The position numbers were made by a program, and so were the translations under genes. The notes under the pieces are model-generated. The model saw only the letters and a program-made list of their open reading frames with translations, was not told the origin of the DNA and did not search any database. This document shows positions 1,720 through 19,827 of a DNA stretch of 64,000 nucleotides, piece by piece; the first letter of the stretch is position 1, and the number at the start of each line of letters is the position of its first letter. This DNA comes from Methanobrevibacter sp. V74. GTDB lineage: Archaea; Methanobacteriota; Methanobacteria; Methanobacteriales; Methanobacteriaceae. The stretch spans positions 326,114-390,113 of the forward strand of contig NZ_CAUJAN010000004.1 of assembly GCF_963082495.1 (NCBI RefSeq). Direction: 5' to 3'.

Positions 1720-1757
1720 TGTTTTGAATAATTCAAGAGAAAACATTCAGTAAATAC
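1720..1757 (+). repeat. 38-bp breakpoint repeat, copy 1
   Basis: This is one of three identical 38-bp sequences (others at 17017-17054 and 19790-19827, same orientation). It begins TGTTTTGAATAATTCAAG and ends CATTCAGTAAATAC. Inside it are a TTGAA-TAA-TTCAA dyad and outer TGTTTT/AAAACA arms. Here the right side runs directly into a Mur ligase gene lacking its 5' part; the left side is unrelated AT-rich DNA. Confidence 0.9.
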
Positions 1758-2733
1758 TAAAGTTTGGTCATGTTCTTCTTTAGTTAATAATTTAGTTAGT
1801 GAGGCTATTATCGACGGTGTTGTTAAAGGTGAAGCAGAAAATTGTGATATAGCTATTTTTGAACTTCCTCATGGAACTATTGGACTTTTAAATAAATTGG
1901 ATTTAAAAATAGGTCTTTTAACTAATATTGCTGAGGATCATTTATCTGAGTTTGATGGTTCTCTTGAAAAGTATCAACAACGTAAACTGATTTTAGAGGC
2001 GATGAGTGAAACATTTATTTCAAATGATTCTTGTAGGAGCATTATTTCAAAAGTAAGAAATGATGCTATTTACTATGCATTAGATAAGGATGTTGACTTT
2101 AAAGGTATTGTTGGAGATGAGTCATTAACTATTGAGTATGGTGAAAATAAATTCACAGCCCCTTTTAATATGATGAGTTATTTCTTTGAAAATGCACTTG
2201 CAGCATCAGCTTTGGCTTTAACATATGGTATTAAAAAAAAGGATATTATTACTGCATTAACAGAATTTAGAGGACTGCCTGCTCATATGGAATATGTTGG
2301 TGATTATAATGGAAGAGATGTAATTCTAGATTCTGCATTTTTATATGATGGTATGAAAATTACATTAGAATATTTTAAAGACGATAACGTGATTTTATTT
2401 TTAGATCACTTTGACACGCTTTCTAAAAGGGATAAAGCCGAAGTTGGCAAGCTAGTAGGAGAATATGTGGATGTTATAATAGCTAGTGGATTTAATGAGG
2501 TTACTCAGGAAGTGGAGATTGAAGCAGCACATGAAATATTGGATGCTATTGAAAATCCGAATGCTATAAAAGTTGCTGTAGAAACAATAGAAAAAGCAGC
2601 AGAGCTTACTTTTAAATATTCTAAACCAGGAGATATTATTTTACATATGGGTCCACTTATAGCTTATGATAGACTAACTACTGTTGATAAAATTATGAAA
2701 GGGCTTGAAGAGGGAAGTAGGAAATATGAATGA
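1758..2733 (+). pseudogene. Mur ligase family protein, N-terminus missing
   Basis: The readable frame continues upstream of the first usable start (TTG 1897) to the edge of the 38-bp repeat, encoding K-V-W-S-C-S-S-L-V-N-N and then the central Mur ligase region (A-I-F-E-L-P-H-G-T-I-G, L-L-T-N-I-A-E-D-H-L). The C-terminal domain follows, ending in a motif around G-P-L-I-A-Y-D-R-L. The whole first domain and the ATP-binding GxxGKT loop are absent, so it cannot be a working ligase alone. An intact protein of this type would be roughly 100-150 residues longer. It overlaps the next ligase by 8 bases, as in an operon. The family could be a pseudomurein peptide ligase or the F430-synthesis ligase CfbE; I cannot decide which. 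Confidence 0.75.
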
Positions 2734-4249
2734 GTCTGATTTTGATAAAAACACTATTTTTGGTGTAATTGGTGTTTGTGGAGCAAATAATAATCTAATA
2801 GCTAGAATACTTTGTGAAAGAGGTTTCAAAGTTATTGGAACCGATTTGTCTCAAAAAAAAGATTGTAAGTTTGCAAATGCTTTAAATGCATATGATATAG
2901 ATGTTTTTTATGGTAAAACACCAAATGCATTTTTCAATAAGGCAGATTATATTATTCCACCAGCAAGTTTACCTAAGGATTCTGATATTTTTAAAAGAAT
3001 AAATAAACCAATTTTAGAATTAAATGACATAATTGAAATATTTAAACCAAACAAAGCAGTTTTTGGAATAACTGGTACTAATGGTAAAACAACATCAACA
3101 ACATTGCTTAAAAAAATAGCTTTTGATAATGGTATTGTTCCTTGTGAACATAATTTAGATGGAATGCAAGGTAATGCAGAATTTATCCCGATTTTGCAAT
3201 CAAGATTAAATGCGGATGTGGGAATTTTGGAAGTTGGAACATTCGGAATACCTGGCACAGTTGGCAGAATAGTAAAAAGTTCTGACATGTGCGGTGGTTT
3301 GATTACCAATATTACTCCAGATCATTTAAATGACCTGGGAAGTTTTATGGATTATGCAAATGTAAAAGGAGAATTTATATCTGAATTAAATAATCGTAAA
3401 TTAATAGTAAATGGAAATGATCCAACAATAATTGGACTTTTAAGAGAATTAAATTATCAAGGAGAACTTATTACATTTGGAGTTGATGAACTTCCAGATT
3501 CTCTAGGAATTAAAGAATGTGTTTGTGGAGAAGATATTGCCGTTAAAGAAATTATTTCCGGTTGTGGATATTACTACTGCCAATGTGGAATTACAACTCC
3601 TCAATTTGATTATGTTGCAACAAATGTTGATTTAACAAACAGGACTTTTGATTTATACACTCCAAGTGAAAAACTAACAGTAAAAATGGGAATCGATGGA
3701 CTTCACAATGTATATAATATTACTGGAGTTATTATAGCTGCTCATGAATTCTTAAAGTTACCTTTTGATAAAATTTTAAAATCAGTTGCAACTTTCACAG
3801 GTGTTAAAGGCAGAATGGAAAAAGTAGCAAAAATAAATTCAAAAAACATTTTCATAGATTATGCTCACAATCCTGCAGGAGTCCAAACAGTTTTAGGGGA
3901 ATTTAAAAAATTATTCGGGGACTTTACAACAGTTATTACAGTTTCTTCTGAATCAGGTCTTGAAGGAGATTTAGAGATTTTTAATAGTGTAGTTAAATTT
4001 TCAAAATTTATTGTTCCAGCATCATCTGCTTCTCAAAAAATTGCAAGTGAAAAATTAAAAGAAAACCCAAAATTAAACGATAAAATATTTTTAAATCATA
4101 TAAGCGAATTTGAAAAAAAAGGAACTCTTGGAGCTAGCGAAAATAATGTGCGGGATGGAATAAAAAAAGCTTTAAATTTAGATTGTGACATGATTGTAGC
4201 TATTGGAGAGGCAGCTATTAAGTTTAAAAATGTTATTTATGAGTTATAA
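2726..4249 (+). CDS. Mur ligase family protein with MurT-like Cys insertion
   Basis: This is an ATP-dependent amide ligase of the MurC-F superfamily, complete at about 507 residues. The ATP loop G-I-T-G-T-N-G-K-T-T lies near residue 115-123, followed by T-N-I-T-P-D-H-L-N-D and the C-terminal I-D-Y-A-H-N-P-A-G motif. The middle domain holds two cysteine knuckles (C-V-C-G and C-Q-C-G about 25 residues apart) resembling the zinc-ribbon insertion of MurT-type ligases. ATG 2726 is preferred over TTG 2705 because it follows a purine-rich GGAAG-type site. In this group such ligases are thought to build the pseudomurein peptide, but the exact substrate is not readable here. A decayed copy of the 3' end lies at 11649-11757. 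Confidence 0.75.
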   Translation: MNESDFDKNTIFGVIGVCGANNNLIARILCERGFKVIGTDLSQKKDCKFANALNAYDIDVFYGKTPNAFFNKADYIIPPASLPKDSDIFKRINKPILELNDIIEIFKPNKAVFGITGTNGKTTSTTLLKKIAFDNGIVPCEHNLDGMQGNAEFIPILQSRLNADVGILEVGTFGIPGTVGRIVKSSDMCGGLITNITPDHLNDLGSFMDYANVKGEFISELNNRKLIVNGNDPTIIGLLRELNYQGELITFGVDELPDSLGIKECVCGEDIAVKEIISGCGYYYCQCGITTPQFDYVATNVDLTNRTFDLYTPSEKLTVKMGIDGLHNVYNITGVIIAAHEFLKLPFDKILKSVATFTGVKGRMEKVAKINSKNIFIDYAHNPAGVQTVLGEFKKLFGDFTTVITVSSESGLEGDLEIFNSVVKFSKFIVPASSASQKIASEKLKENPKLNDKIFLNHISEFEKKGTLGASENNVRDGIKKALNLDCDMIVAIGEAAIKFKNVIYEL

Positions 4250-4279
4250 TTTACGTAATGGATAAAAAAAGAAAAAGAT

Positions 4280-4297
4280 GGAAGTTTATAAACTTCC
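4280..4297. terminator. Bidirectional terminator hairpin between convergent genes
   Basis: An 18-base perfect palindrome (GGAAGTTTATAAACTTCC) is followed by TTATTTTTT on the plus strand and preceded by an A-rich stretch that gives a U-tract on the minus strand. It sits between the convergent Mur ligase and adhesin gene ends. Confidence 0.6.
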
Positions 4298-7200
4298 TTA
4301 TTTTTTAACTTTTATAGTTACTTTTTTACTTAATGCTTGGTAGTATGCATTACCTGCAAATTTAACAGTAGCTTTGTAAGAACCTTTTTTAGTTAATTTA
4401 GTTAATTTGAAAGTAGCTTGACCTTTACTGTTTGTTTTAGCAGAATATGTTTTTTTACCTAATTTTATAGTAACTTTAACTTTACTTAAAGCTTTGTTTT
4501 CGTTGGTTTTTAATACAATAGAGTATTTTTTAGTTTTCTTTTTAGCTTTAAAGGTTACTTTTTTAGCATTCATTTTAGGAGTTGCTTTTTTAACAGTTAA
4601 TTTTGCAGTTTTAAAAGTTTCATTATAATTGGAAGTTGATGCAAATATAACTTTAACATTGTAGTTACCTGGTTTTAAATTATTAACACTAACTGTACCT
4701 TTACCATTAGTAACTTTAACATTAACTTTTTGAGATCCAATAATAACACTAACAGTACCTGATATTGGGTTAGCTAAGGTTATAGTTAAAGTTTTAGCTA
4801 CATTATAAATTTTAGAACCACCTGAAATAGTGATGGTAGGAGTAGCTTTAGCTACAGTAAAAGTAGTATTAGCAGTACTTGAGTAAGTAGTAACATTATC
4901 GCCAACAAAGTTAGCTACAGCAATATAATTGCTGGCATCTAAAATATCACTAACTTTTAAAGATCCACTGCCATTAACAACGGTTATACTATAATTTTTA
5001 TTATTAATATTTACAGTAACATTACCCGAAACATTATTTAATAAAGTAACATCAATAGTAAATCCGTTACCATAAGTAATGTCTGCAATTTTAACTGTTA
5101 AATTAGTGTCAACAGCAGTAACTTTAAGTTTAGTAGCATTAACATAAAAATGACCATTAATTTCAGTAGTGCCTATAGCAACAGCACTGTCATATGTACA
5201 ATCTTCAATAGCAATAGCATCATCAAAATTAGCAGCAGAATCAACTACACCATTAAATTTAGAATTAGTGAAAGTACAATTTTTAAAGTAAATGCCATCA
5301 TCTTCAAAATAACCAGTACCCTCACGGTAAACTAAAGAATCAGCAGTAATATTCTCAAAAATACAATTATTAAGATTTACAGCATAGTATTTATATAAAT
5401 TAACTACATTATTTGCATCAATATCTTTAAAAATACAATTGTTAAAGGTCATTGAATTTGTTTTTGCATATCCATATTCCAAAAACATTCTCGGATCCAT
5501 AGTAGTACTATAATACTTTGTCTCATTACCGAATCTCATAGGTGCAGTAAATGTACAATTAATAAAAGTAGAATTAATATTTATACCTGTATCAATACTT
5601 GTACCTGCAGCTATTGTTAAATTAACAAATTTATGAGTAACATTTGTTACACCAGCAGCACCTGATTCAAGAGGTAATTTAAGTATAACTTTGCTACCTA
5701 GACCAATTACAGTAATATTTCTGCTACACTCTAGAGGAAAATAATTGTAGTCCTCTGCAGTATATTCTCCATCTGCTACATAAATTACTCCATTATTTAG
5801 AATATCCCGGAAAGCTCTAAGAAGTGAATCTTTTCCTCCATATGCATTTTCCCAACTTTGACCATCAACAGATTCTGGATCATTAGGAGATGAAGCATTA
5901 ACATAAATAATATTGTGCCACTCTGTTAAAACATTATCATTTGACATTCTTAATAAAGATTTTACAGAAGATTTAGGAGAATTACATATGCAAGTTTCAT
6001 TATATGGGGTGGCTTGATAACTGTTGATAAATACATTATTACAGAAACAGTAATCATTACCAGTAATTACAACAGTATCAATTCCAGTTGCGGTGTGATT
6101 GACAAATAGGTTATGACAAATTTTAATATGGGGATTTCCACCAGTACCATTTTCATATGTATAAGTTGCAGCAGCAATTGCTTGGCCTATTCTTGCATAG
6201 TTTCCAGTGAAATTAGAATTACATACGGTTAAGTAACCTCCATTCAATACAGAGATGGCTCCTCCGCGACCAAGAGAAGTAGTTGAAATGTTGGTGTAAG
6301 CCTCACATAGGTTTTTGTTATAGTTAAATCTACAGGAATCTATGGTTATATTGTATTCAGAGCCATAGTTGTATGCTCCGATTGCTCCACCACCATTATT
6401 GGTAGTACAGTTGTTATTTTCAAAAGTAGAATTATATATTTTTAATTTACTGTAGGTGTATAATGCTCCACCATTCCATCCAGCTGTATTTCTTTTAAAA
6501 ATAGAATTTTGAATTTCAGTTTGAGCATTTGTATGAGTATGTATTGCTCCAGCCCACCAATTAGCATGGTTGCCGTCAAACAGAGTATTATTTACATATA
6601 AAATTCCACAATTATTAATTGCACCAGGTTCAACACTGGCACTATTATTAACAAAATTACAATCATCAACATACATTACAACACTTGTAGTACTTCCAAA
6701 AACATAATTAGAAACTGCACCATAACCAGTATTACAATTAGTAATATTGCATCCAGAAATATACATCAAATTATTAGTATTATATATAACTGAATTACGT
6801 CCTGTTGCAGTTTGAATATTATTAAAAGTACAATTTTCTAAATAAACTGTACCATCAAGTTGTAATAAATTGTTAGCATTAACATTTAAAAATTTAACAT
6901 TAATAAAATGTAAGGTTAATGCAGGATTAATGTTTAAAAACGGTGTTTTAGAAGTAGAACCTCCAGTAATATAACTGACATTACTACCAACGATGGTAGC
7001 ACTATTTTTGAACTTTATTACTTCGCCAATGGTATAAGTAGTTCCAGTTAAAGTAATATATTGACTAGTTGGGGCTTCACATTTATTTTTCAATGTATTC
7101 CAATCATATGCAGTAGTGGGTGTTCCACTAGTAGATGATATTTTAGAGTTTTCTGAAGCTAAATCATCATCTAAATTTTTTATAGTTTGAATATCATCAT

Positions 7201-7369
7201 TTGAATCATCAACATTATCAATAGATACAGAATTATCATCAAGTGTTGATTCTGCAACTACTGTATCATTAATATCTTCCGTAGCACTTGCTGTTCCAAT
7301 AAAACAGAGTAGCATCATGAGTAATGATAATATTGCTATCTTATTTAATTTAATTTTTATTCCTCCCAT
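4298..7369 (-). CDS. Adhesin-like protein, beta-helix plus Ig-like domains
   Basis: This is a secreted surface protein of about 1,020 residues. A hydrophobic signal peptide (I-A-I-L-S-L-L-M-M-L-L-C-F-I-G-T-A-S-A) is followed by an Asp/Asn-rich linker. A long right-handed beta-helix region comes next, with recurring N-x-G-x-F/N-N-S and G-G-A-I/L motifs of the polymorphic membrane protein type (about residues 85-800). Ig-like repeats and a very Lys-rich last 130 residues ending T-I-K-V-K-K follow. No membrane anchor is seen. The ATG at 7369 overlaps the purine-rich site GGGAGGA; the codon at normal spacing from that site is ATT (7354-7352). The N-terminal half is closely similar to the gene at 61146. 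It probably binds or decorates the cell wall, by family inference. Confidence 0.85.
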   Translation of the reverse strand: MGGIKIKLNKIAILSLLMMLLCFIGTASATEDINDTVVAESTLDDNSVSIDNVDDSNDDIQTIKNLDDDLASENSKISSTSGTPTTAYDWNTLKNKCEAPTSQYITLTGTTYTIGEVIKFKNSATIVGSNVSYITGGSTSKTPFLNINPALTLHFINVKFLNVNANNLLQLDGTVYLENCTFNNIQTATGRNSVIYNTNNLMYISGCNITNCNTGYGAVSNYVFGSTTSVVMYVDDCNFVNNSASVEPGAINNCGILYVNNTLFDGNHANWWAGAIHTHTNAQTEIQNSIFKRNTAGWNGGALYTYSKLKIYNSTFENNNCTTNNGGGAIGAYNYGSEYNITIDSCRFNYNKNLCEAYTNISTTSLGRGGAISVLNGGYLTVCNSNFTGNYARIGQAIAAATYTYENGTGGNPHIKICHNLFVNHTATGIDTVVITGNDYCFCNNVFINSYQATPYNETCICNSPKSSVKSLLRMSNDNVLTEWHNIIYVNASSPNDPESVDGQSWENAYGGKDSLLRAFRDILNNGVIYVADGEYTAEDYNYFPLECSRNITVIGLGSKVILKLPLESGAAGVTNVTHKFVNLTIAAGTSIDTGININSTFINCTFTAPMRFGNETKYYSTTMDPRMFLEYGYAKTNSMTFNNCIFKDIDANNVVNLYKYYAVNLNNCIFENITADSLVYREGTGYFEDDGIYFKNCTFTNSKFNGVVDSAANFDDAIAIEDCTYDSAVAIGTTEINGHFYVNATKLKVTAVDTNLTVKIADITYGNGFTIDVTLLNNVSGNVTVNINNKNYSITVVNGSGSLKVSDILDASNYIAVANFVGDNVTTYSSTANTTFTVAKATPTITISGGSKIYNVAKTLTITLANPISGTVSVIIGSQKVNVKVTNGKGTVSVNNLKPGNYNVKVIFASTSNYNETFKTAKLTVKKATPKMNAKKVTFKAKKKTKKYSIVLKTNENKALSKVKVTIKLGKKTYSAKTNSKGQATFKLTKLTKKGSYKATVKFAGNAYYQALSKKVTIKVKK

Positions 7370-7566
7370 TTAATTAAATTTTGAATTTTTTTTAGAAAAA
7401 AATAATTTAGTTAATCATTTGAATTTGATTTATACTAAATCATTAAAACTTGAATAAAATGCAATTTTATTAAATTATAGATAATTATTTATCAATGCTA
7501 TTTTACTCAATATTATATGATGTATTTAAGTAATATAAACCTAACGATTATTTGCTTTTAAAAAAT

Positions 7567-7593
7567 AGTAAAAAAAGGTCTATTTTTAGACCT
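7567..7593 (-). terminator. Terminator of adhesin-like gene
   Basis: AGGTCTA-TTTT-TAGACCT forms a 7-bp stem (7576-7593). Read on the minus strand it is followed by a run of seven T (complement of 7569-7575). It lies just past the stop at 7613. Confidence 0.6.
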
Positions 7594-7612
7594 ATACTGT
7601 TTAAATTAAGTT

Positions 7613-9655
7613 TTATAATTCATTTTTCTTGTTTTTTGTTTTATATCCTATGATTGAGAAAATTAATATAATAATAACTATTGTAATCATTTGAATATAA
7701 TTAATTCCATCTAAAGTATCTATTTTTTTACTTACCTCATAAGATTTCGAATTAGAAGCATCTAATTGACTACTTCCTTCAATTGAACCTGAAGAGGAAG
7801 AAGCACTTGTAATATCAACACCAGAAGTACCATAAGTATAATGTGATGAATTTAAATTTCCATTATGGGCTTGTGATTTAGTATTATTGGGGTTTCTTCC
7901 AAAAACATTGTTTTTATTAGTACCACCATTTCCAGAATTAATAGATTTTCCACCATTATCTCCATTTCCACTAATAGAATTTCCTTTAGTATTCATCCAA
8001 CTTAATGACAAACCTTTTCCTTTATATGGATTATCAAAATAATATTTCAACGAATTAGGGTATTCATTAGCACTCATTTTACGCACAGGTTTAGAACCAT
8101 CAGTATTATTAACGACAACATTTCTCGGTCCAATTGCATCTACTGCACGGTTTCCACAATATTTTCTAGTCTTTAAAATATTATTTGCAACAATAGAATC
8201 TGATACTATAGAATTACCACCGCCTCTAAGTGCAACTGCACGATCACTGTTAGTTGAAACATTGTTGTATTGAATATTATATTTATGATTCCCATTAGTA
8301 GGTTGAGTGTAACTTATACCATAAACATTAAATCCTTTTTCAAATTTATTTACAGTATTAACAATAATTGTATTATTAAATATTCTATCGTCAGAATCTT
8401 GTACTTCAATTCCACTTACTAAAGCCCAATAATGCTTACTTGCGACTCCAGTAACATTAATAAAATTACTAACAATATCTAATTGGGTTATACCATTGTA
8501 ATTTTGTGAATAAATACCAATATTAGGACCGTTACTATAACTACTAATGTTATTAAAAGCTATTAGTACATTTTCAGCATGACCTGTTACTTGAATTGGA
8601 TAAGCAGTACCATGTGCTTCTTTACCACCAGTAGTGCGGATATGAATATTATTGCCAACAATCATAACATCACTAGAAAAATACACATCTAAACCATACA
8701 AATAATTATCAGTACCATTTTTAGTAATATAATCACTTTCAAGGATAATATTTCTCTCAATTGTCGAATTATTGCATGCATAAATTAGTACAGCATCTAA
8801 TGTTGGATATCCTTTCTTTAAACTATTAATAACACTACATTTTATATAATTATCAGATAATCTTAGGTTGTAACATGACTCTGCTGCTAATGCTGCAACT
8901 GCATCCATACGAATACCTACAGTTCCCCAATTAACAGATCTTAAAGGAAGAGAACAAATAATATTATTACCTGAAATAAATGCATCACGAGTGTTTGTTA
9001 AAACAACACCATAATTATAACCATTTGTAATAGCGTTTCCATAGAGTTTAACTGTATTATTTATGAGTTGTAAATTAGATAATTTATAATTTAACCCATT
9101 AGAATAAATTCCATAACCTATAATATTTTTAGGAACAGTATAATTAATGTTGACATTATAAATTGTAACATTATTTGAATTTATTAAAATACAAGCTCCT
9201 TCATTATAGCTAAAATCATCATTACAAACAAAGTTTAAATTAGTTAACATCACGCCATTAGCATTTATATTAAAAACAGTATTGTAAAATAAAGTATTTT
9301 TTCCAGTAATCTTGGTATCTGTTGAATTTATAGTAAACGCGCCTAAATCATTAAAAGCACCATAAAATGTGAGTTTGCTTCCACCATAATTACTTTTTAA
9401 AACTTTATTATCATCAAAATATATTTTATAGTTTTTTTGATTGATAACATAATTTTTATCAATGTTAGATGCTTTTTTAGAATCATCAGAAGAATAAGAA
9501 ATTAAATTCGTATTTTCCACATCATCATTAATAGTTAATAAATTAGCATCATTTGTGGATGTTAAATTGTTATTTACATCTTCAAAAGCAGAAACATAAC
9601 TAATACTAACTAAAAATATAATGGATAGTGAAAATAATAATAAATATTTATTCAT
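7613..9655 (-). CDS. Adhesin-like protein with C-terminal membrane anchor
   Basis: About 680 residues. A signal peptide (Y-L-L-L-F-S-L-S-I-I-F-L-V-S-I-S-Y-V-S-A) is followed by a beta-helix region rich in N-N-I/T-I motifs. A low-complexity Gly/Asn/Ser stretch comes next (around residues 560-640), then one hydrophobic helix (I-Q-M-I-T-I-V-I-I-I-L-I-F-S-I-I-G-Y) and a short basic tail, so it is anchored in the membrane with the body outside. ATG 9655 is chosen because a GAGGGTTGA-like site lies about 8 bases upstream; TTG codons at 9661 and 9667 are alternatives. It is a clear paralogue of the gene at 52390, with the same domain order and anchor. Its precise binding partner is unknown. Confidence 0.85.
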   Translation of the reverse strand: MNKYLLLFSLSIIFLVSISYVSAFEDVNNNLTSTNDANLLTINDDVENTNLISYSSDDSKKASNIDKNYVINQKNYKIYFDDNKVLKSNYGGSKLTFYGAFNDLGAFTINSTDTKITGKNTLFYNTVFNINANGVMLTNLNFVCNDDFSYNEGACILINSNNVTIYNVNINYTVPKNIIGYGIYSNGLNYKLSNLQLINNTVKLYGNAITNGYNYGVVLTNTRDAFISGNNIICSLPLRSVNWGTVGIRMDAVAALAAESCYNLRLSDNYIKCSVINSLKKGYPTLDAVLIYACNNSTIERNIILESDYITKNGTDNYLYGLDVYFSSDVMIVGNNIHIRTTGGKEAHGTAYPIQVTGHAENVLIAFNNISSYSNGPNIGIYSQNYNGITQLDIVSNFINVTGVASKHYWALVSGIEVQDSDDRIFNNTIIVNTVNKFEKGFNVYGISYTQPTNGNHKYNIQYNNVSTNSDRAVALRGGGNSIVSDSIVANNILKTRKYCGNRAVDAIGPRNVVVNNTDGSKPVRKMSANEYPNSLKYYFDNPYKGKGLSLSWMNTKGNSISGNGDNGGKSINSGNGGTNKNNVFGRNPNNTKSQAHNGNLNSSHYTYGTSGVDITSASSSSGSIEGSSQLDASNSKSYEVSKKIDTLDGINYIQMITIVIIILIFSIIGYKTKNKKNEL

Positions 9656-9820
9656 TTTCAATTTCAACCCTCTTTATTATTCTAATTGCCATATTTCATG
9701 ACATTATTTAAATATTAAAGTAAATCAAAATAATATTAATTTTTAATATATTTCAACTAACTTTAATAATATTATTTCACATTTAAATAGTTAATAAAGA
9801 TAACTATTAATTATAATATA

Positions 9821-11543: not shown

Positions 11544-11648
11544 ATATATTATTGCGTATTTTATTTTTAACTAATAAAATTTTTGATTTAAATGCTCTTA
11601 TTAAAAAATTAACAGAAACACAACATCTATAACTAATTATTGAGGGAA

Positions 11649-11757
11649 TTTCATTCTAAAATTGTAATTGAAAAATTAAATGATAATATATTTTTAAATC
11701 ACGATCCGATAAAAAAAACTCTTGGAGCTATAAAATAATGTTATTTATGAATTATAA
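11649..11757 (+). pseudogene. Decayed 3' fragment of Mur ligase gene
   Basis: The stretch reads F-H-S-K-I-V-I-E-K-L-N-D-N-I-F-L-N-H-x-x-x-K-K-T-L-G-A and then the bases of N-V-I-Y-E-L. It matches the last about 80 codons of the Mur ligase ending at 4249 (K-L-N-D-K-I-F-L-N-H, G-T-L-G-A, N-V-I-Y-E-L) with internal deletions. It shows that ligase 3' sequence exists on both sides of the adhesin/toxin block. Confidence 0.65.
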
Positions 11758-11771
11758 TGAAAGATAGTTAG

Positions 11772-12669: not shown

Positions 12670-12755
12670 TTACTTAGCAAATGCTCTTTGTTAATATATT
12701 AATAATGCTTTAAATAATAATTAAATATATAAAATGTTAATATGCAGGTTTAATC

Positions 12756-15071
12756 ATGACTAGTTATATAAAACATCCTTTAATTAAAGAAAACTCTATA
12801 GAATCAAGGTTATACCAACAAGTTTTAGCGGGGGATGTTTTAAAAAAAGGAAATACTATGGTTGTTGCACCTACCGCATTAGGTAAAACTATCGTAGCTA
12901 TTCTAGTTGCAGCAGATAGATTGAATAAAGTTAAAAATTCAAAAGTTCTTGTTTTAGCTCCGAGTAAACCACTAGCAATTCAACACGAAGCTAGTTTTAA
13001 AGAATTTTTAATGGTGCCTTGTGCATCAATTACAGGAGCGGTTAAAACTGATGAGAGAACTAAACGGTGGGAAGAATCAAGAGTTGTTTGTGCTACTCCT
13101 CAAACTGTTGAATCAGATTTGCTAAAAGGTCGATATGATTTAAATAATGTTTCTTTAATAGTTTTTGATGAATGCCATCATGGAGTAGGTTCTTATTCTT
13201 ATGTTTATTTGGCATCTAGATATGTTCAAAAATCAAATTATAATTTGATTTTAGCTTTAACTGCTTCTCCAGGTTCTGATAAAGAAAAAATAAAAGAAGT
13301 TTGTGAGAATTTATTTATTCAAAATATTGTAGTTAAAACTGAGGAGGATCATGATGTAAAACCATATTTTAATCCAGTTGAAATAGATTGGGTTAAGGTA
13401 AAAATGAGCAGTGAACTTGAAAAAATTAAAAAATACGTTGATAAGGCATTAAAAATCCGACTTAAAGCTTTAAAAAATATGGGTATTATTAAAACTGTTT
13501 CTGTAAACAAAGGGGATATTTTAAAAGCTAGAGCCAAAATTCAAAGTGAAATTGGAAGAACTGCAAATCCTTCTAAAGAATCTTTTCAAGCAATTTCAAT
13601 ATTAAGTGCTGTTATTAACATTCAACATGCACAAGGCCTTATTGAAACTCAAGGAATCCAAACTTTTAATAAATATATAGGGCGTTTACGTAAAAAGAAA
13701 ACTAAAGCAGCTAAATCATTAATTTATGATGATAATTTTGGACGTGCTGTTAAACTTGCTCGTGATGCTGAAAAACATGGTTGGGAACATCCAAAACTTA
13801 GAAAAGTAACTGAAATTCTTAAAAAAGAGTTGGCTACTAGTGATGGTCAAACTAAATTACAATCTAAACGATACGAAAAAGAAGATTCTAAATCTTCTAA
13901 AATTATGGTTTTCACACAATACAGAGATACACTTGAAATGATTCATCAAAAACTAGAAAAAGAAGGAATCAAATCTGTTAAATTTTATGGACAAGCTTCT
14001 AGGGATGGGGAAAAAGGATTAACTCAAAAAGAACAAAAAGAAATCATAAAAGCCTTTAAAATGGGCGAATATGATGTTTTATTATCTACAAGTGTAGCTG
14101 AAGAAGGTATTGATATTCCTGCAGTTGATTTGGTCATATTATATGAACCGGTTCCTTCTGAAGTTAGGATGATTCAAAGAAGGGGGAGAACTGGACGTAA
14201 AAGAACTGGTCGTGTAAAAGTTCTTATAACTACGGGAACAATGGATGAGGGGTATTATTATTCTTCAATTTACAAAGAAAGTAGGATGAAAAATCAATTA
14301 ATAGATCCTGTTGTTTTAGCCGAACTTAATGAATCTGCAGTTGAAAGAATGGAAAATGAAAAAAAGATTAAAGTCATTGATAAGCCTGAAAATGAAAAAT
14401 TACCTTTGGTTTTTGCTGATTCAAGAGAAGGTAATTCTAAAGTTATTAGACATTTAAGTGAAATGGAAATTGATGTTAAAATCCAATCAATGGCAGTTGC
14501 CGATTATCAGGTAAGTGATGAAGTAGCTATTGAGAGAAAAACTGCTAAAGATTTTGTTGATTCAATTGTTGATAAAAGATTATTCAAACAGGCTCGTGAA
14601 TTATCCGAAGAGTTTAAACGTCCTTTGATGATTCTTGAAGGCGATGACTTATATTCGGGTATGATTAATCCTAATGCTATTAGAGGTTCTATAGCTTCAA
14701 TTGCACTTGACTTTGGTATTAGTATTATTCCAACAAGAAACGCTCAGGATACTGCAGCTATGATTAAAAGAATAGCTATTCGTGAACAAAGTGGTGAGAA
14801 AGTTCCTATTCAAATAAGAACAGATAAAAAACCACTGAGTTTGTTTGAACAACAGCTATTTATTATAGAATCCCTTCCAAACATTGGGCCTGTTAATGCT
14901 AAAAATTTATTGGAGCATTTTGGCTCTGTATCTAATGTTATTAATGCATCTGAAAGTGAACTTCAAGAAGTTGAAGGAATTGGTTTAAAAACAGCTAAAA
15001 GTATTAGGAATGTTATTGATTCCAAATATTTATATTTTAAAAATGAAATAAAAGAAAAGCGTCTTATTTAA
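12756..15071 (+). CDS. hef: Hef helicase/nuclease
   Basis: A 771-residue, full-length archaeal XPF/MPH1-type protein acting at stalled replication forks. The N-terminal superfamily 2 helicase has Walker A A-P-T-A-L-G-K-T (38-45), D-E-C-H (138-141), T-A-S-P-G, and a C-terminal helicase motif around Q-R-R-G-R-T-G-R. The ERCC4-type nuclease follows, with the intact V-A-I-E-R-K-T-A-K-D-F signature (about residue 590) and F-A-D-S-R-E-G. Two helix-hairpin-helix motifs (L-P-N-I-G-P-V-N-A, V-E-G-I-G-L-K-T-A) close it. Helicase and nuclease residues both look intact. Its stop overlaps the convergent stop of the next gene. The PINA-type ATPase, a branch-migration factor in other archaea, is close by. 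Confidence 0.95.
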   Translation: MTSYIKHPLIKENSIESRLYQQVLAGDVLKKGNTMVVAPTALGKTIVAILVAADRLNKVKNSKVLVLAPSKPLAIQHEASFKEFLMVPCASITGAVKTDERTKRWEESRVVCATPQTVESDLLKGRYDLNNVSLIVFDECHHGVGSYSYVYLASRYVQKSNYNLILALTASPGSDKEKIKEVCENLFIQNIVVKTEEDHDVKPYFNPVEIDWVKVKMSSELEKIKKYVDKALKIRLKALKNMGIIKTVSVNKGDILKARAKIQSEIGRTANPSKESFQAISILSAVINIQHAQGLIETQGIQTFNKYIGRLRKKKTKAAKSLIYDDNFGRAVKLARDAEKHGWEHPKLRKVTEILKKELATSDGQTKLQSKRYEKEDSKSSKIMVFTQYRDTLEMIHQKLEKEGIKSVKFYGQASRDGEKGLTQKEQKEIIKAFKMGEYDVLLSTSVAEEGIDIPAVDLVILYEPVPSEVRMIQRRGRTGRKRTGRVKVLITTGTMDEGYYYSSIYKESRMKNQLIDPVVLAELNESAVERMENEKKIKVIDKPENEKLPLVFADSREGNSKVIRHLSEMEIDVKIQSMAVADYQVSDEVAIERKTAKDFVDSIVDKRLFKQARELSEEFKRPLMILEGDDLYSGMINPNAIRGSIASIALDFGISIIPTRNAQDTAAMIKRIAIREQSGEKVPIQIRTDKKPLSLFEQQLFIIESLPNIGPVNAKNLLEHFGSVSNVINASESELQEVEGIGLKTAKSIRNVIDSKYLYFKNEIKEKRLI

Positions 15072-15814
15072 AAGTTTTCTTTTATATACTCATAACTTTT
15101 TTTAATGGAATCATTATCATTTACTTCGATGATGTAGATGCCATCATATTTTTTATCTTCAAAAGTATTGATGATACTTTTTAAATCAATAGATCCATCA
15201 CCTAAAGCAAGGTGGGAGTCATCATCACCAAAATTATCATGCATGTGGATGTGTTTAATACAATCAAAATACATTTGGTTTGTAGCATATCCAATATGAT
15301 TAGCATGACCAATATCTAAAGTCATGAACATGTCAAGTGAAGTTAATGTTTCATTTAAATCCTCTAATTTTTGATACATCATTGATTCAAAAGAAGGCAT
15401 ATTCTCAATAGCTACCATTACTCCTAAATCTTGCCCATATTCTCCAAGTTCTTTTATAGATTCATTAGATAAGTCATAAACAACTTTTTCAAAACCTCTG
15501 GCTAAAAAGGGAATTAAACCTGGATGAACAACAACACATTCAGCATTAATTTTATTAGCAGTATCTATTGTTTGTTTAATCTGTTTAATTGAGTTTTCTC
15601 TACTAAGCTTGTTTAAAGAAGCAATATTAACATCCATAAATGGAGCATGCATAGAATATTTTAAATTAAAGCTTTCTACATTGGCTATATTAATATCTTG
15701 ATTAGGGTACTGGTGTAGAATTTCAGCATATTCAAGTCCTAACTCTTCAATAAATTCTAAACTATCTTCTAATTTGTCATTTATCCCTGCTAATGTTGAT
15801 GCACCAATTTTCAT
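15068..15814 (-). CDS. TIM-barrel sugar isomerase/endonuclease IV-like protein
   Basis: 248 residues of the xylose isomerase-like/AP endonuclease 2 superfamily. Metal-site type residues are visible: E-I-L-H-Q near residue 30, V-V-H-P-G-L near 95, A-I-E-N-M-P near 135, L-D-I-G-H-A near 165, and I-H-M-H-D-N near 190, ending Y-I-I-E-V-N. It may isomerise a sugar phosphate or cut abasic DNA; the family does not settle which. Placed between hef and the PINA ATPase, a repair role is possible but is inference. It lies 7 bases downstream of the PINA stop and is probably co-transcribed. Its own stop overlaps hef's stop by four bases. Confidence 0.75.
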   Translation of the reverse strand: MKIGASTLAGINDKLEDSLEFIEELGLEYAEILHQYPNQDINIANVESFNLKYSMHAPFMDVNIASLNKLSRENSIKQIKQTIDTANKINAECVVVHPGLIPFLARGFEKVVYDLSNESIKELGEYGQDLGVMVAIENMPSFESMMYQKLEDLNETLTSLDMFMTLDIGHANHIGYATNQMYFDCIKHIHMHDNFGDDDSHLALGDGSIDLKSIINTFEDKKYDGIYIIEVNDNDSIKKSYEYIKENF

Positions 15815-15821
15815 ATCATCA

Positions 15822-17033
15822 CTATTTTTTAATTGCTGTAATTTCTAATCCCATTTCTATAGCTTCTATAATAAAATTAGATAGTTCAATTCCTTGTTTA
15901 ATTTTAATTTCTCCTTTTTTAGAGGTGGTGGCAGTAAGTAAATATTCACCACCTATACAAATATCAAAGTTTTTTCTACCATTGTCACGACCTAAATCTA
16001 AAATTAATTGTTTTTTTGTGTGAATTATGTCAATTTCAAAGGATTTTCTATTTTGAATATTTTTTTCAAGCACTTCAACACCAATACTTATTCCGATATC
16101 TTTTTCAATTTCAGCTATTCGCCTACCATTTTTACCAATGATTTCTGGGATGTGTTGTTCTTCAAAATAGATTTTAGCTCTTTCAGGTGATATTACTTCA
16201 ACTTCTACTTTTGCTTTTTTAGGTAGTATCCTTTTTATTTTCCTTAAAATTTCTTTTTCAGCTATTTTTTCAACTGATGATTTTTGTGATTGTAAATCAG
16301 TATCTTGATTTACTAAATCAACATCCATAACAATTGTTTGTTCACCATAAGTGTAGATTTCATTTTTAAGTTCTCCACTTTCAAAATCTCTAACTTCAAT
16401 AACAGGCCTTGCAAGATCTGCTTCTTTCATACCAGTTGGAACTTTAACGGTTATTTTTGTTTCATAAACATTTTTAACAGCACCATCTTCAATATAGATG
16501 CTAGTATCAACAATTGAAGGTATCACACCAAGTTCTACTCTTGAAGCTATTCTTTGAATTGCATCAATTGGTCTAGTTGCATGCACAACACCAATCATTC
16601 CAACACCAGCTAATCTCATATCTGCAAATATATTAAAATCATTATTTTTTCTTAGTTCATCATAAATAGTATAATCTGGACGAACAAGAAGTAAAACATC
16701 GGCAGTATTCTCCATACTTCCTTCAAGGGGACTGTATTGTGTAATTTCATTGGGTAATTGCAAATCTCTTGGCGATTCCATTGTTTTTACAACTTTATTT
16801 AGTTCTTCTGAGTAAAATTTAGCAATAGATTGTACAAAAGTACTTTTTCCTGCTCCTGGTGAACCGGATATTAATATTCCTTCTGCATTAGTTCTTATCC
16901 TATCCATTAGTTTATCAGATAAATGATAATCACTTAATTCAATATTAACAACAGGTTTAACTGCGGTTATTTCTAAACTTTCAGAAAAAGGCACTTCTGC
17001 TATCGAAATTCTATATTGTTTTGAATAATTCAA
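15822..17033 (-). CDS. PINA-type ATPase with KH domain, N-terminal PIN domain lost
   Basis: Intact family members are about 600 residues: a PIN domain, a PilT/VirB11-like ATPase and a KH domain. Here only 403 residues remain. The frame opens with a TTG inside the 38-bp repeat (M-N-Y-S-K), then goes straight into the ATPase (E-V-P-F-S-E-S-L-E-I-T, Walker A S-G-S-P-G-A-G-K-S-T near residue 57, D-Y-T-I-Y-D-E, G-V-V-H-A-T-R) and the KH loop I-I-G-K-N-G-R-R-I near 315. The PIN domain is nowhere upstream. In Sulfolobus the family forms a hexameric Holliday junction helicase, so a headless version may be impaired or altered. The ATPase itself looks intact. Confidence 0.85.
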   Translation of the reverse strand: MNYSKQYRISIAEVPFSESLEITAVKPVVNIELSDYHLSDKLMDRIRTNAEGILISGSPGAGKSTFVQSIAKFYSEELNKVVKTMESPRDLQLPNEITQYSPLEGSMENTADVLLLVRPDYTIYDELRKNNDFNIFADMRLAGVGMIGVVHATRPIDAIQRIASRVELGVIPSIVDTSIYIEDGAVKNVYETKITVKVPTGMKEADLARPVIEVRDFESGELKNEIYTYGEQTIVMDVDLVNQDTDLQSQKSSVEKIAEKEILRKIKRILPKKAKVEVEVISPERAKIYFEEQHIPEIIGKNGRRIAEIEKDIGISIGVEVLEKNIQNRKSFEIDIIHTKKQLILDLGRDNGRKNFDICIGGEYLLTATTSKKGEIKIKQGIELSNFIIEAIEMGLEITAIKK

Positions 17034-17054
17034 GAGAAAACATTCAGTAAATAC
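17017..17054 (+). repeat. 38-bp breakpoint repeat, copy 2
   Basis: Identical to 1720-1757 and 19790-19827. Left of it lies the beheaded PINA gene (minus strand). Right of it lies a transposase fragment that is also cut short. It supplies the TTG that opens the PINA frame. Confidence 0.9.
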
Positions 17055-17588
17055 ACAATTGGTTGTGATATTTCAACATCATGTTGTTTTTTAAGTAATA
17101 AGAGATTTCTATGAAGTCCTGCATCATAAACTGATATAAATCATCAATACAATCAGCAGCGAATGTAATATTTGAATTGTTAGAAACAGGTAAATATAAA
17201 TCAGTGTGAAAAAATTTTACCACATTTTTTAAGTTTTCATCAATTCTTAAAAATATAAGTTTACGTTTCGTAAAATTCCATTTTTAATATTGTTTGGTGA
17301 TTTACAAGAAGGACAACTTAGCAATTTTATTCTCAAAATGAATTTTGCCCCTCTTTTCTAATATAATTAGAACTATTATTAATAGATTCACATTCAAACG
17401 AGAAAGACCTTCAAATTCACGGAATTCAGAAAATTCAAGTACCAAATCAAAAAATTTAAGTCATATAGACTCCATACTATTACATAGAAATTCTATATAT
17501 TAGTTTAAGCTGATATAAACAATTTACTACTTTTAAATTAAAAATAAATAATAAATAGTAGAGAAATTTTTCATGCCACAAAAAATTC
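17055..17588 (-). pseudogene. Degenerate ISM1-like transposase fragment
   Basis: Translated in pieces, the minus strand reads K-F-F-H-T-D-L-Y-L-P-V-S-N-N-S-N-I-T-F and L-L-L-K-K-Q-H-D-V-E-I-S-Q. These are counterparts of Y-T-D-L-S-x-x-V-x-x-N-S-N-I-T and L-L-K-K-E-H-N-I-E-I in the remnant at 9849-10680. It breaks off at the 38-bp repeat, about one third into the protein. The outer element end is at 17589-17610. Confidence 0.55.
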
Positions 17589-17610
17589 AAATCACACAAG
17601 TTTTTGAAAG
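17589..17610 (+). repeat. Terminal sequence of ISM1-like element (copy 2)
   Basis: AAATCACACAAGTTTTTGAA and the two bases after it match 22757-22778 apart from one base. It marks the 5' outer end of the transposase fragment. The rest of this gap (17611-17743) holds only AT-rich DNA. Confidence 0.5.
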
Positions 17611-17743
17611 AGATTTCATATTTTACCATTCATCAATGAAATAACCCCTCTTAATCAATACTATTATAATAACTAAATTAATAAACAAAGATAAGAATAT
17701 CTATGTTTTAAAAAAATGCAGTTATAATAAATATTGTTAAAAT

Positions 17744-17777
17744 AAGGATTATATAAGTTTTAATCCTTATTTTTTTA
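17744..17777. terminator. Terminator hairpin after adhesin-like gene
   Basis: AAGGATTA at 17744-17751 pairs with TAATCCTT at 17761-17768 around a 9-base loop. T-rich sequence lies on both outer sides. It overlaps the stop of the minus-strand adhesin gene. Confidence 0.5.
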
Positions 17778-19374
17778 TTTTAATTTTAGTGTTTTTGTTT
17801 ATTGCGTAATTTTGGTTTGCTGATTTTATAACTACTTTATGTGTTCCGACTTTTAAACAACATGTGTGTAAGTGAGTTTGTCCCTTTTCATCTGTTATTA
17901 ATGTGTATGTTTTGTATTTTTTTCCTGTGAAGCATTTTACTTTGATTTTAATAAAAGGTACTGCTTTTTTGGTTTTTTTGTTGATGATTTTGATGTTTAA
18001 TTTTTTGTCTTTGTGGATTTTTGCTGTGATTTTATTTGTTTTTACAATTGTGGGGATTTTATTGATTTTAATATTAACCTTTTGGGTTGGTGATTTATAA
18101 TTGTTTAAAATATTAATATAAGCTTTATAGTTTCCTGCTTTCCATTTTGATACATTAAATTTGGCTTTTCCATTTTTATTTGTAGTTGCATAGTATGTTT
18201 TACCATTGACTTTTAATGCTAATTTAACATTGCTAATGAAATAATAATTTTTTATATCCATAAGTTCAACGGTGAAATATTTTCCTGAATTATATATGGT
18301 TTTAAAATTATCAGCATGGATAAATGCTGGAACTTTATTAACTTTAATAATCGCATTAGCACTATACTTATAAAGTTTATCATGACTACTTAATTCAACC
18401 TTGTAAATACCATCATTTAAGTTATCAGGTAACTTTAAAACACCTAAACCCTTATCATCAATAGTTAGGTTAAATATTTTATCATAACCTTTTTTAAATA
18501 TGTGTACTTTAACAATGTCTCCTTTAAATGGAATATCTCCTAAACTAAATTTAACAAGAAAATTACCTGCTGTTCCATAGTTGATGGAAAGATTATTAGC
18601 AGTTAAATGTCCTTTAGAGTTTACAACAACACAATAAAATCTAGCAGGTTTAGACGGATCATTATCATATAAATCTCCAATATAATCACCATGAACAACA
18701 CCTTCTAAAAACTTATAATGAGAAGCAGCACCCATAATTCCATGATATCCTGTGTTATTGAAGAAAAATGTATCTCGAATAGTTCCGTTTGCCCCTTCCC
18801 AATAAATAGCACCACTTCCACCATAACTTACACTATAAAATTCATTATTATATATTGATGAAGCGATTATAGTTCCATTATTACCTTTCCAATATATAGC
18901 ACCACCAGGACCACTTTCTAAAGGTTCCAAGATAGATAAATATCCCCCATTTACTTTCCCATTTATTATTCTTAAGTTTTTTAGTACTACATTGTCAGAA
19001 AGTATGTATAATGCTCTGTATTTTTTATTAGCGTCTAAAGTACTGTGCCCATTTTCACTTGTGATTGTTATGCTTTTATTAACAATTATTTGATGACCAG
19101 TACTTTTATAAGTTCCATTAAGGACAATGGTATCATTATCGTTTGCTATGTTAATTGTTTTTTGAATATCTTCAAAAGTGCTTCCATTAACATATCTAAC
19201 TACTCCACCTGTTTTTTTTAAAGGAACATTATCTATATTAGATAAATAAGAAAGATTTGGAGCATCAGTATTGTCTTCTATTATTGTATCATTAATGTTC
19301 TCATTAGCTGATACTAATCCTATGCTGAATATTAAAATAATTAATAATAATGTTGATATTAATATTTTATTCAT
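17767..19374 (-). CDS. Adhesin-like protein with Ig-like repeats
   Basis: A secreted protein of 535 residues. The signal peptide is N-K-I-L-I-S-T-L-L-L-I-I-L-I-F-S-I-G-L-V-S-A. Next comes a short beta-helix section (about 50-240) with G-G-A-I-Y-W and I-V-L-N-G-T-Y motifs. Three Ig-like repeats of about 85-95 residues follow, each with Y-x-A-x-x-x-K/N-G-K-A/G-x-A/T-x-F/L. The tail is Lys-rich, ending I-K-I-K-K, with no membrane anchor. A GGAGGAT site sits 7 bases before the ATG at 19374, an unambiguous start. It lies 15 bases downstream of the truncated adhesin at 19390, with similar Ig-like repeats, so the pair probably arose by duplication or was once one cluster. Confidence 0.85.
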   Translation of the reverse strand: MNKILISTLLLIILIFSIGLVSANENINDTIIEDNTDAPNLSYLSNIDNVPLKKTGGVVRYVNGSTFEDIQKTINIANDNDTIVLNGTYKSTGHQIIVNKSITITSENGHSTLDANKKYRALYILSDNVVLKNLRIINGKVNGGYLSILEPLESGPGGAIYWKGNNGTIIASSIYNNEFYSVSYGGSGAIYWEGANGTIRDTFFFNNTGYHGIMGAASHYKFLEGVVHGDYIGDLYDNDPSKPARFYCVVVNSKGHLTANNLSINYGTAGNFLVKFSLGDIPFKGDIVKVHIFKKGYDKIFNLTIDDKGLGVLKLPDNLNDGIYKVELSSHDKLYKYSANAIIKVNKVPAFIHADNFKTIYNSGKYFTVELMDIKNYYFISNVKLALKVNGKTYYATTNKNGKAKFNVSKWKAGNYKAYINILNNYKSPTQKVNIKINKIPTIVKTNKITAKIHKDKKLNIKIINKKTKKAVPFIKIKVKCFTGKKYKTYTLITDEKGQTHLHTCCLKVGTHKVVIKSANQNYAINKNTKIKIKK

Positions 19375-19389
19375 TATTATATCCTCCTT

Positions 19390-19806
19390 TTATTTTATTA
19401 TTTTTATATTTCTGGTACATGATATTGTGTATTTGTTGTTTGCAGAACTTATAATAACTTTATGTGTTCCTACACTTAAAATTTTTGTATTTAAATAAAT
19501 TGTACCTTTATCGTTTGTTGTTAATGTGTATGTTTTGTAGTTTTTTCCTGTGAAAACTTTAAGAAAAACCTTTATTCCCGTAATTGTTTTTCCTGTAACT
19601 TTATTTTTAATATTAGCAGTAAAATATTTGTTTGCTTTGTATTTATGAATTATATCTTTAGCATTTACTATAGTAGGTGCTTTATTTATTTTTATCGTAC
19701 TTGTTTTTGAATCAGCTTGCAGGTATTGAGTTGGTTCTCCACTCTCTATGATTACTTTATGAGTTCCGATGGATAATTTAGAGCAATGATGTTTTGAATA
19801 ATTCAA
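19390..19806 (-). pseudogene. Truncated adhesin-like gene, C-terminal Ig-like part
   Basis: 138 residues in a frame that opens with the TTG of the 38-bp repeat (M-N-Y-S-K-H-H). What follows is the C-terminal part of an Ig-like adhesin: G-T-H-K-V-I-I-E-S, T-I-K-I-N-K-A-P-T-I-V-N-A, K-T-Y-T-L-T-T-N-D-K-G. It has no signal peptide, so it cannot be exported by the general pathway. The last 60 residues closely resemble the end of the gene at 17767 (K-T-Y-T-L-I-T-D-E-K-G-Q). The repeat replaced everything upstream. Confidence 0.75.
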
Positions 19807-19827
19807 GAGAAAACATTCAGTAAATAC
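19790..19827 (+). repeat. 38-bp breakpoint repeat, copy 3
   Basis: Identical to the copies at 1720 and 17017. The minus-strand adhesin fragment lies to the left. To the right is AT-rich DNA unrelated to that flanking either other copy. Confidence 0.9.

What the first reader, a model, noticed from the sequence alone, without database searches (positions are those of the whole stretch)
1720..19827. A discrete 38-bp sequence marks three gene breakpoints
Identical 38-bp copies at 1720, 17017 and 19790 each join a gene missing its 5' part (Mur ligase, PINA ATPase, adhesin) to unrelated DNA. Both flanks differ at all three copies, so this is not simply the end of one IS type. The sequence has an internal TTGAA-TAA-TTCAA dyad and TGTTTT/AAAACA arms. 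The truncated gene lies on the right of copy 1 but on the left of copies 2 and 3. This fits a site-specific recombination site or a small mobile scar that swaps or removes 5' ends, possibly shuffling surface proteins.
Basis: partly seen in the sequence, partly recalled or inferred. Interest (0 to 1): 0.85.

Follow-up and report, generated by a model that had tools for sequence, protein, structure and literature searches.

The report
CRISPR-type array storing gene-sized DNA
The repeated 38-letter sequence is the repeat of a CRISPR-like array in a methane-making archaeon whose "spacers" are not 30-40 letters long but stretches of chromosome (0.2 to 15 thousand letters) from itself and from neighbouring species, apparently inserted by a Cas1-Cas2 pair without the usual CRISPR partner genes, which would make it a gene-capturing cousin of CRISPR.

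Summary
The three 38-mers are real: three repeats (37 bp plus one chance base) of a direct-repeat array: leader remnant (19828-19952), copy 3, a 2.7-kb segment, copy 2, a 15.3-kb segment, copy 1. The 15.3-kb segment (1758-17016) is a 99.7-99.8% identical copy (main blocks) of one block of another genome's chromosome (G006), where the Mur ligase and PINA genes are intact; G000 keeps its own diverged intact copies (77-81%). So no gene was swapped: a foreign chunk, cut mid-gene at both ends, lies between two repeats. In relatives the same leader and repeat type stand directly downstream of cas2-cas1. Of 23 such loci with more than 300 bp downstream, 20 carry repeats at long intervals, 3 one repeat, none a canonical array. 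61 intervals span 204-15,260 bp. Seven of 33 segments searched match a chromosome end to end at >=97.7% (five own genome, two G006). No donor flank printed (10 segments) shows the repeat. Only cas2 and cas1 are shared by the loci; sister Cas1s sit beside ordinary arrays (one with type III-A genes). Best reading: a Cas1-Cas2 module that integrates long DNA by repeat duplication, working like an integron but made from CRISPR parts. The enzymology is inferred.

The parts
1720..1757 (-). Repeat copy 1, leader-distal (37-bp unit 1721-1757)
   Evidence: leader-oriented comparison
1758..17016 (-). Captured segment 2, 15.3 kb; block of another genome's chromosome, cut in a Mur ligase (left end) and a PINA-type ATPase (right end)
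   Evidence: aligned to G006:C81:13822-28484, main blocks 99.83% (9.0 kb) and 99.7% (4.35 kb), a third stretch of 1.0 kb 98.8%; intact genes there (open frames of 463 and 624 aa)
1758..2733 (+). 5'-cut Mur ligase (C-terminal part) inside segment 2
2705..4249 (+). second, complete Mur-ligase-type gene carried in segment 2
   Evidence: own copy elsewhere 77% identical
4298..9667 (-). two large genes carried in segment 2: 4298-7369 (clusters with the adhesin-like protein of segment 1) and 7613-9667 (surface-protein-like by eye, not scanned)
   Evidence: (both present in donor)
11767..12669 (-). about 0.9-kb element with a group II intron end inside segment 2, absent from the donor, hence probably inserted after capture
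   Evidence: Rfam RF00029 at 11767-11843
15822..17016 (-). 5'-cut PINA-type ATPase inside segment 2
17017..17054 (-). Repeat copy 2 (37-bp unit 17018-17054)
17055..19789 (-). Captured segment 1, 2.7 kb: 5'-cut adhesin-like fragment and one complete adhesin-like gene (17767-19374)
   Evidence: weak Ig-like Pfam matches; donor not searched genome-wide
19790..19827 (-). Repeat copy 3, leader-proximal (37-bp unit 19791-19827)
19828..19952 (-). Leader remnant, homologous to the stretch between cas1 and the first repeat in relatives; no cas1/cas2 follows in the window
   Evidence: one alignment of repeat plus leader with G026, 164 columns, 93%; no cas hit in window; leader alignment

Best explanation
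The 37-bp sequence is the repeat of a CRISPR-type array in which the inserts are long. A dedicated Cas2-Cas1 pair recognises the leader-repeat junction, joins both ends of a long double-stranded DNA piece (own chromosome or DNA from other cells) to the two ends of the first repeat, and repair of the single-stranded gaps duplicates the repeat, so the newest piece lies next to the leader. The window holds such an array with two pieces (2.7 and 15.3 kb) and no cas genes; another array with an intact pair stands on contig C7 of the same genome. Shown: leader-repeat-segment anatomy, association with Cas1-Cas2, absence of short spacers in the intervals measured, end-to-end donors for some segments, no repeat in the donor flanks printed. 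Inferred: that Cas1-Cas2 performs the insertion, how the DNA gets in, how two ends 15 kb apart are held, and what the captured genes are for (most likely retention of useful genes, as in integrons).
For: (1) Window copy 3 is followed by about 125 bp of leader homologous to the cas1-to-repeat stretch of relatives. (2) In 21 fetched loci a Cas2 gene (21 of 21) stands just upstream of Cas1; no other gene is shared so widely; Pfam/NCBIfam assign both. (3) Long intervals in 20 of 23 loci with >300 bp downstream, a canonical array in 0 of 23; sister Cas1s canonical in 6 of 7, distant Cas1s in 4 of 4 fetched. (4) 61 intervals, 204-15,260 bp. (5) Repeats mostly identical within an array, different between arrays, the more degenerate copies mostly leader-distal: expected if copied from the leader repeat, not if each insert brought its own. 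(6) End-to-end donors for 7 of 33 segments searched: own genome 335 (333 bp aligned), 440, 483, 499, 529 bp; another genome 2,112 bp and 15.3 kb. (7) Two sister genomes, each one contig, share a 4.3-kb flank (96%) up to and including the first repeat and then differ almost wholly. (8) Cas1 positions E163/H227/E242 kept in 36, 37 and 36 of 37 proteins, the exceptions being one D each.
Against: No experiment. The window array itself lacks cas genes, so activity there needs the C7 pair acting in trans or a recent loss. No clear PAM in the donor flanks ('AC' follows 4 of 9 distal ends, too few to judge). Three clade loci (G039, G063a, G003) show a single repeat only. In G026 the nine copies on C27 form two runs of opposite orientation and the most degenerate copy is not at the distal end; two uncounted regions (G055:C7, G032:C17) also show both orientations. 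Several segments are composites (for example G017 segment 1, two origins), so later rearrangement also shapes arrays. 26 of 33 segments searched gave no end-to-end match of 97% or more (the tool scored at most 4 candidate places per genome, so some may be missed). The base of the Cas1 tree is unresolved (one clade of the long type not rejected, p-AU 0.235).
Confidence: 0.8

Rival explanations
1. Short-spacer seeding: Cas1-Cas2 inserts ordinary short spacers and homologous recombination later pulls in the neighbouring donor DNA, so long segments are secondary.
For: Captured pieces often come from the own chromosome, where homology would be available; a few segments are composites.
Against: 0 of 61 intervals are shorter than 204 bp; segments from 204 bp to 15 kb end at repeats on both sides, in 20 genomes.
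Confidence: 0.08
2. Integron-like site-specific recombination by a tyrosine recombinase (a XerA-like gene lies near some loci; the name XerA is recalled).
For: Gene-cassette-like arrays; a phage-integrase-family gene occurs within 6 kb upstream in 8 of 21 loci.
Against: It was not found in the fetched upstream stretch of the other 13 (several of these stretches are shorter than 5 kb), and its distance to cas2 varies from about 0.3 to 3.4 kb; donor flanks printed for 10 segments carry no repeat although integron cassettes carry their own site (recalled).
Confidence: 0.05
3. Decayed canonical CRISPR arrays into which other DNA has been inserted or recombined over time; no capture of long DNA by Cas1-Cas2.
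For: The window array lacks cas1; leader-distal repeats are often degenerate.
Against: Leader-proximal repeats are exact in intact cas2-cas1 loci, also in single-contig genomes; seven segments match donor chromosomes end to end at 97.7-100%, hence recent; no spacer of normal size is left in 61 intervals.
Confidence: 0.04
4. Assembly or binning artefact.
For: Many of the genomes are drafts in many contigs.
Against: The pattern is present in single-contig genomes G002, G004, G007 and G008; the two chromosomal contexts of the 15-kb block differ in the expected way (intact genes in G006, cut genes in G000, a 0.9-kb insert only in G000).
Confidence: 0.02

Closest known systems
CRISPR array with type III-A adaptation module (sister Cas1 clade in the same genus)
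   Same: Cas2-Cas1 next to a leader and direct repeats; homologous Cas1 (43-47% identity); repeats homogeneous and leader-polarised in the long type
   Different: Inserts 0.2-15 kb instead of short spacers; no Csm/Cas6/Csx1 genes shared at the loci (present at G063's sister locus); donors found are host or neighbour chromosomes; the Cas2 N-terminal Asp is N, E or K in the seven M. smithii/Methanosphaera-group loci
Integron
   Same: Array of gene-sized pieces, many with complete genes, with some bias to read away from the leader (25 of 35 by longest ORF; not by first ORF, 30 of 54)
   Different: Cas1-Cas2 instead of IntI; the repeat belongs to the array, not to the captured DNA; many short pieces are bare gene fragments
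Casposon / casposase (Cas1-solo transposon)
   Same: A Cas1-type enzyme that would join kb-long DNA with a target duplication (casposon features seen as passages of PMC4046053, and recalled)
   Different: Cas2 present, no further gene such as PolB shared by the loci, segment ends differ, the inserted DNA does not encode the enzyme

Membership tests
CRISPR-Cas array | Identical direct repeats of CRISPR size next to a leader | tested here: met
   37-bp repeats, leader alignment
CRISPR-Cas array | cas1-cas2 adaptation genes next to the leader | tested here: met
   In relatives and at G000:C7; not at the window array
CRISPR-Cas array | Spacers of uniform short length | tested here: not met
   204-15,260 bp in 61 intervals
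CRISPR-Cas array | Effector genes that use the spacers | tested here: not met
   Only cas2 and cas1 shared widely in up to 6 kb fetched upstream of 21 loci (several stretches shorter); use of a remote effector not testable
Integron | Tyrosine recombinase IntI at the array | tested here: not met
   An integrase-family gene in 8 of 21 loci only, at varying distance
Integron | Recombination site carried by each cassette | tested here: not met
   No repeat in the 25-base donor flanks printed for 10 segments (18 ends)
Casposon | Cas1 encoded inside a mobile unit with PolB and terminal inverted repeats | tested here: not met
   Cas1 lies outside the segments, no further gene shared by the loci, ends of segments differ
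Cas1-Cas2 integrase | Cas1 fold with E/H/E active site | tested here: met
   PF01867 E 4e-71, full-length match to solved Cas1 4n06, residues kept; activity not tested

The most novel reading that the evidence does not exclude
A Cas1-Cas2 pair, derived from a type III-A CRISPR adaptation module that lost its effectors and its length ruler, runs an integron-like gene bank in Methanobrevibacter (including M. smithii) and Methanosphaera. It copies long DNA of self, other archaeal species and (by homology of cargo only) viruses into a polarised array, and selection keeps useful cargo, notably small immunity-like genes next to toxin-like gene ends, adhesins, cell-wall and restriction-modification genes.
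Probability: 0.45. Interest if true: 0.97.

Novelty: categorically new. Interest (0 to 1): 0.93.

Why it matters
CRISPR adaptation is understood as a machine that measures out about 30-40 bp (recalled). A natural Cas1-Cas2 family that takes gene-sized DNA would show that the ruler can be dropped, would be a dedicated gene-capture route in archaea common in human and ruminant guts (recalled), would explain recent mosaic chunks between species, and could become a tool for inserting or recording long DNA. It makes a concrete question testable: what in Cas1-Cas2 sets insert length, by comparing this clade with its canonical sister in the same genus.

Tried and rejected
Rejected: IS end or MITE (flanks differ at every copy; the repeats form an array with a leader). 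Invertase/shufflon: no recombinase shared by the loci; copies in one orientation in 18 of the 19 arrays that I searched on both strands (exception G026), but two uncounted regions, G055:C7 and G032:C17, show both orientations, and the G030 and Methanosphaera arrays were searched on one strand only. Loss of host genes: intact native copies exist. XerA-like integrase as the partner: not shared by the loci. PAM search: 5' flanks end catc, aact, tatt, tcaa, agag, catt, cctt, agat (left out: gtgg of a diverged alignment and the G017:C26 site); 3' flanks begin tatc, acaa, acga, taac, tata, tcaa, ctac, acct, acat; nothing convincing. Viral reservoir of the Cas1: no relative in viral contigs; the Mu-F-like cargo protein has none there either but a 46% match in a Methanobacteriales tailed-virus record and a 30% match to part of M. 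smithii tailed virus 1. My first label of the 0.9-kb insert as an IS was wrong: Rfam shows a group II intron end. Cas1 tree: base unresolved; the canonical label needs two changes. Literature searches (listings and starts of abstracts only) and passages of PMC8730458, PMC10910872, PMC4046053, PMC5294841 showed no description of kb-long spacers; subscription papers and most preprints are not in that library.

Counts: what was dropped. The 28 clade loci (20 long, 3 single repeat, 5 with 264 bp or less downstream) leave out fragmentary Cas1 hits (G036, G055, G038, second pieces in G004) and, of seven distant Cas1s found, the three not fetched. In three clade loci the scan also found 1-3 short-period matches 6-9 kb upstream of cas1, in low-complexity sequence, not counted as arrays. 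The 61 intervals leave out repeats seen in G055:C7, G035:C37, G032:C17 and G026:C12. Donor searches covered 33 of the 61 segments (G000 C7 5, window segment 2, G026 7, G017 4, G004 5, G002 7, M. smithii 4); at most 4 candidate places per genome were scored and the hit lists were cut, so donors may be missed. The Cas1 tree leaves out two partial proteins (G028, G004a) and, also G049.
Full report
OBSERVATION. The three copies are exact and far beyond chance. A fourth, with one mismatch, is solitary at G000:C1:162344: no second copy within 9 mismatches in the 20 kb fetched around it. Among 67 genus genomes only one other, G026, carries the sequence within 3 mismatches, in eight copies. There the 38th base varies, so the unit is 37 bp. 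Written from the leader side it reads GTATTTACTGAATGTTTTCTCTTGAATTATTCAAAAC.

WHAT STANDS NEXT TO IT. In G026 the copies begin 199 bp after the last codon of a cas1 gene that follows a cas2 gene (Pfam PF01867 E 4e-71 and PF09827 E 3e-15). The stretch between cas1 and the first repeat in G026 aligns with the right flank of window copy 3 (one alignment of repeat plus flank, 164 columns, 93% identity), and no cas1 or cas2 was found in the window. An alignment of 19 such stretches (the window and 18 relatives) shows conserved TCCTCA-type motifs and an A-rich end before the repeat. So the window is an array read from right to left: leader remnant, repeat (copy 3), 2.7-kb segment, repeat (copy 2), 15.3-kb segment, repeat (copy 1). 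G000 also has a locus with intact cas2-cas1 on contig C7 (85% identical Cas1) with its own array and a different repeat.

THE CLADE. Cas1 of G026 matches 32 of 67 genus genomes at E <= 0.001. In 19 of 21 fetched cas2-cas1 loci a 37-bp repeat stands about 200 bp after cas1; in the other two the contig ends there. The repeat differs between genomes but is mostly the same within an array. A more distant group (G007, G002, G066, G030, RUG020, Methanosphaera Tb.RUG.228) has other repeats 108-128 bp after cas1, again at long intervals. G007 is taken as M. smithii ATCC 35061 from its length of 1,853,160 bp (recalled, not a tool result). Over 28 loci of the clade (from; fragmentary Cas1 hits left out), 23 have more than 300 bp of downstream sequence: 20 show long intervals, 3 (G039, G063a, G003) a single repeat, none a canonical array; in three loci 1-3 short-period matches lie 6-9 kb upstream of cas1 in low-complexity sequence. 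The sister Cas1s show 16-47 canonical periods in 6 of 7 (none in G044), and four distant Cas1s, of seven found, 31-43 in 4 of 4. I measured 61 intervals in 20 genomes: 204 to 15,260 bp, the next longest 4,299. Four of these genomes are single contigs (G002, G004, G007, G008).

WHAT IS CAPTURED. The 15.3-kb window segment aligns with G006:C81:13822-28484 at 99.83 and 99.7% in its two main blocks; the donor has intact Mur ligase (463 aa) and PINA-type (624 aa) frames across the cut points and no repeat there. Between the main blocks a third stretch of 1.0 kb is 98.8% identical, G006 has about 285 bp not in the window, and the window has a 0.9-kb element, one end of which is an Rfam group II intron match. 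Near copies of that element (97-98%) lie elsewhere in G000. The native G000 genes for the same proteins are intact at C2:432-438 kb, 77-81% identical. In the G000 C7 array, segment 1 (333 of 335 bp, 98.8%) and segment 2 (440 bp, 97.7%) match the own chromosome, and segment 4 (2,112 bp, 99.9%) matches G006 again. In the single-contig genome G002, segments of 483, 499 and 529 bp match the own chromosome end to end at 100, 99.8 and 99.2%. That makes 7 end-to-end matches among the 33 segments searched; at most 4 places per genome were scored, so this is a lower bound. Others match partly (G017 segment 1: 91.5% to G016 over 3.4 kb and 100% to another own contig over its first 106 bp; a G026 segment about 90% to G039 over 1.2 kb; G002 segment 3 at 87% to G032), or no high-identity donor was seen. 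The 97.7-98.8% matches to the own genome may come from another strain.

POLARITY AND TURNOVER. Degenerate repeats are mostly at the leader-distal end; the exception is the reversed half of the G026 cluster. M. smithii (G007) and G002 share 4.3 kb of 96% identical DNA up to and including the first repeat; after it the arrays differ, except for one stretch of 0.8 kb (98.7%) and one of 0.4 kb (92%), both in opposite orientation.

CARGO. ORFs of 80 aa or more sum to about 77% of segment length (small overlaps counted twice). 30 of 61 segments contain such an ORF cut at a boundary, against 1 of 61 for the same segments read backwards: cuts fall inside genes. Short segments are often bare gene fragments. 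35 segments hold a complete ORF of at least 100 aa; in 25 of the 35 the longest reads away from the leader (p 0.017), but counting simply the first ORF gives 30 of 54, no bias. Ten segments start with a complete leader-sense ORF within 100 bp, against four in the mirror control. Recurrent families in different arrays are gene ends that resemble ADP-ribosyltransferase or phage-head-linked toxin tips together with small ORFs that look like immunity genes. Pfam support is thin: two proteins get Phage_Mu_F, one of them also ADPrib_exo_Tox at E 4e-4, below the curated cut-off; two further toxin-like proteins and the small ORFs scanned got none. So 'toxin' and 'immunity' are inference, and no background rate for such genes in these genomes was measured. 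Other cargo: flippase, MmeI-type restriction-modification enzyme, complete Mur ligase, acyltransferase, adhesin-like proteins.

ORIGIN. At G063 the sister Cas1 stands with Csm2, Csm3, Csm4, Csm5, a CARF-HEPN protein and Cas6, a type III-A set (the one sister locus scanned). At the long-insert loci only cas2 and cas1 are widely shared in the upstream stretch fetched. Cas1 keeps E163, H227 and E242 (36, 37 and 36 of 37; exceptions are D); the assignment as active site rests on alignment to solved Cas1 4n06 and recall. In Cas2 the N-terminal Asp of the seven sister loci (YDI) is D in 19 and E in 2 of the 21 close loci, and N (3), E (2) or K (2) in the seven of the smithii/Methanosphaera group. 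This is a candidate for the lost ruler, nothing more. The Cas1 tree does not resolve the base; one clade of the 26 long-type proteins is not rejected (p-AU 0.235).

MECHANISM. Best supported: Cas1-Cas2 integrates both ends of a long DNA at the leader-proximal repeat, duplicating it. The inference rests on constant linkage, repeat duplication, leader polarity, exact joins and repeat-free donor flanks. Not shown: enzymology, uptake of DNA from other species, selection on cargo, trans activity on the window array.

KNOWN OR NEW. It works like an integron but fails its defining tests; it has CRISPR parts but fails the spacer-length and effector tests; it shares with casposons only a Cas1 that would join kb-long DNA. 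My searches of an open-access library found no description (calls named in Tried and rejected); subscription papers could not be searched.

Noticed in passing
window 11767-12669: A 0.9-kb element with a group II intron 3' end (RF00029) and no ORF of 80 aa, absent in the donor block; 97-98% copies at G000:C7:22319, C1:206870 and C1:214060.
   Followed up: partly
window 1556-1700: By eye, inverted ends GAGGGTGTGACACAA / TTGTGTCTCATCCTC about 150 bp apart just left of copy 1: a small MITE-like or decayed IS element.
   Followed up: no
window 24278-24568: A 0.29-kb stretch 98.6% identical to the start of segment 5 of the C7 array; a 99% copy of that start also lies at G000:C3:367620: an unidentified dispersed repeat.
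   Followed up: no
G000:C1:162344 (L004, L016): A solitary copy of the repeat (1 mismatch) joining two different flanks; either a collapsed array or an off-target insertion.
   Followed up: partly
L013 9964-18608: In G026 six repeats form a run in the opposite orientation to the leader-proximal three, with the degenerate copy on the outer side: inverted half array or a second array that lost its leader.
   Followed up: partly
L136, L135, L139, L138 (G055:C7, G035:C37, G032:C17, G026:C12): Further long-interval repeats of the same type, some in both orientations; not counted in the 61 intervals.
   Followed up: no
segments L013inv_17071, L060_2, L066_1, L070_2, L073_2, Msm_2-4, G002_2, G002_4, L059_2: Recurrent toxin-tip-like gene ends and small immunity-like ORFs in different arrays; order of the two small genes is the same in L060_2 and L066_1.
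   Followed up: partly
G000:C11 (L122): The same genome also has a canonical CRISPR array beside a sister-clade Cas1 (46-47% identity).
   Followed up: no
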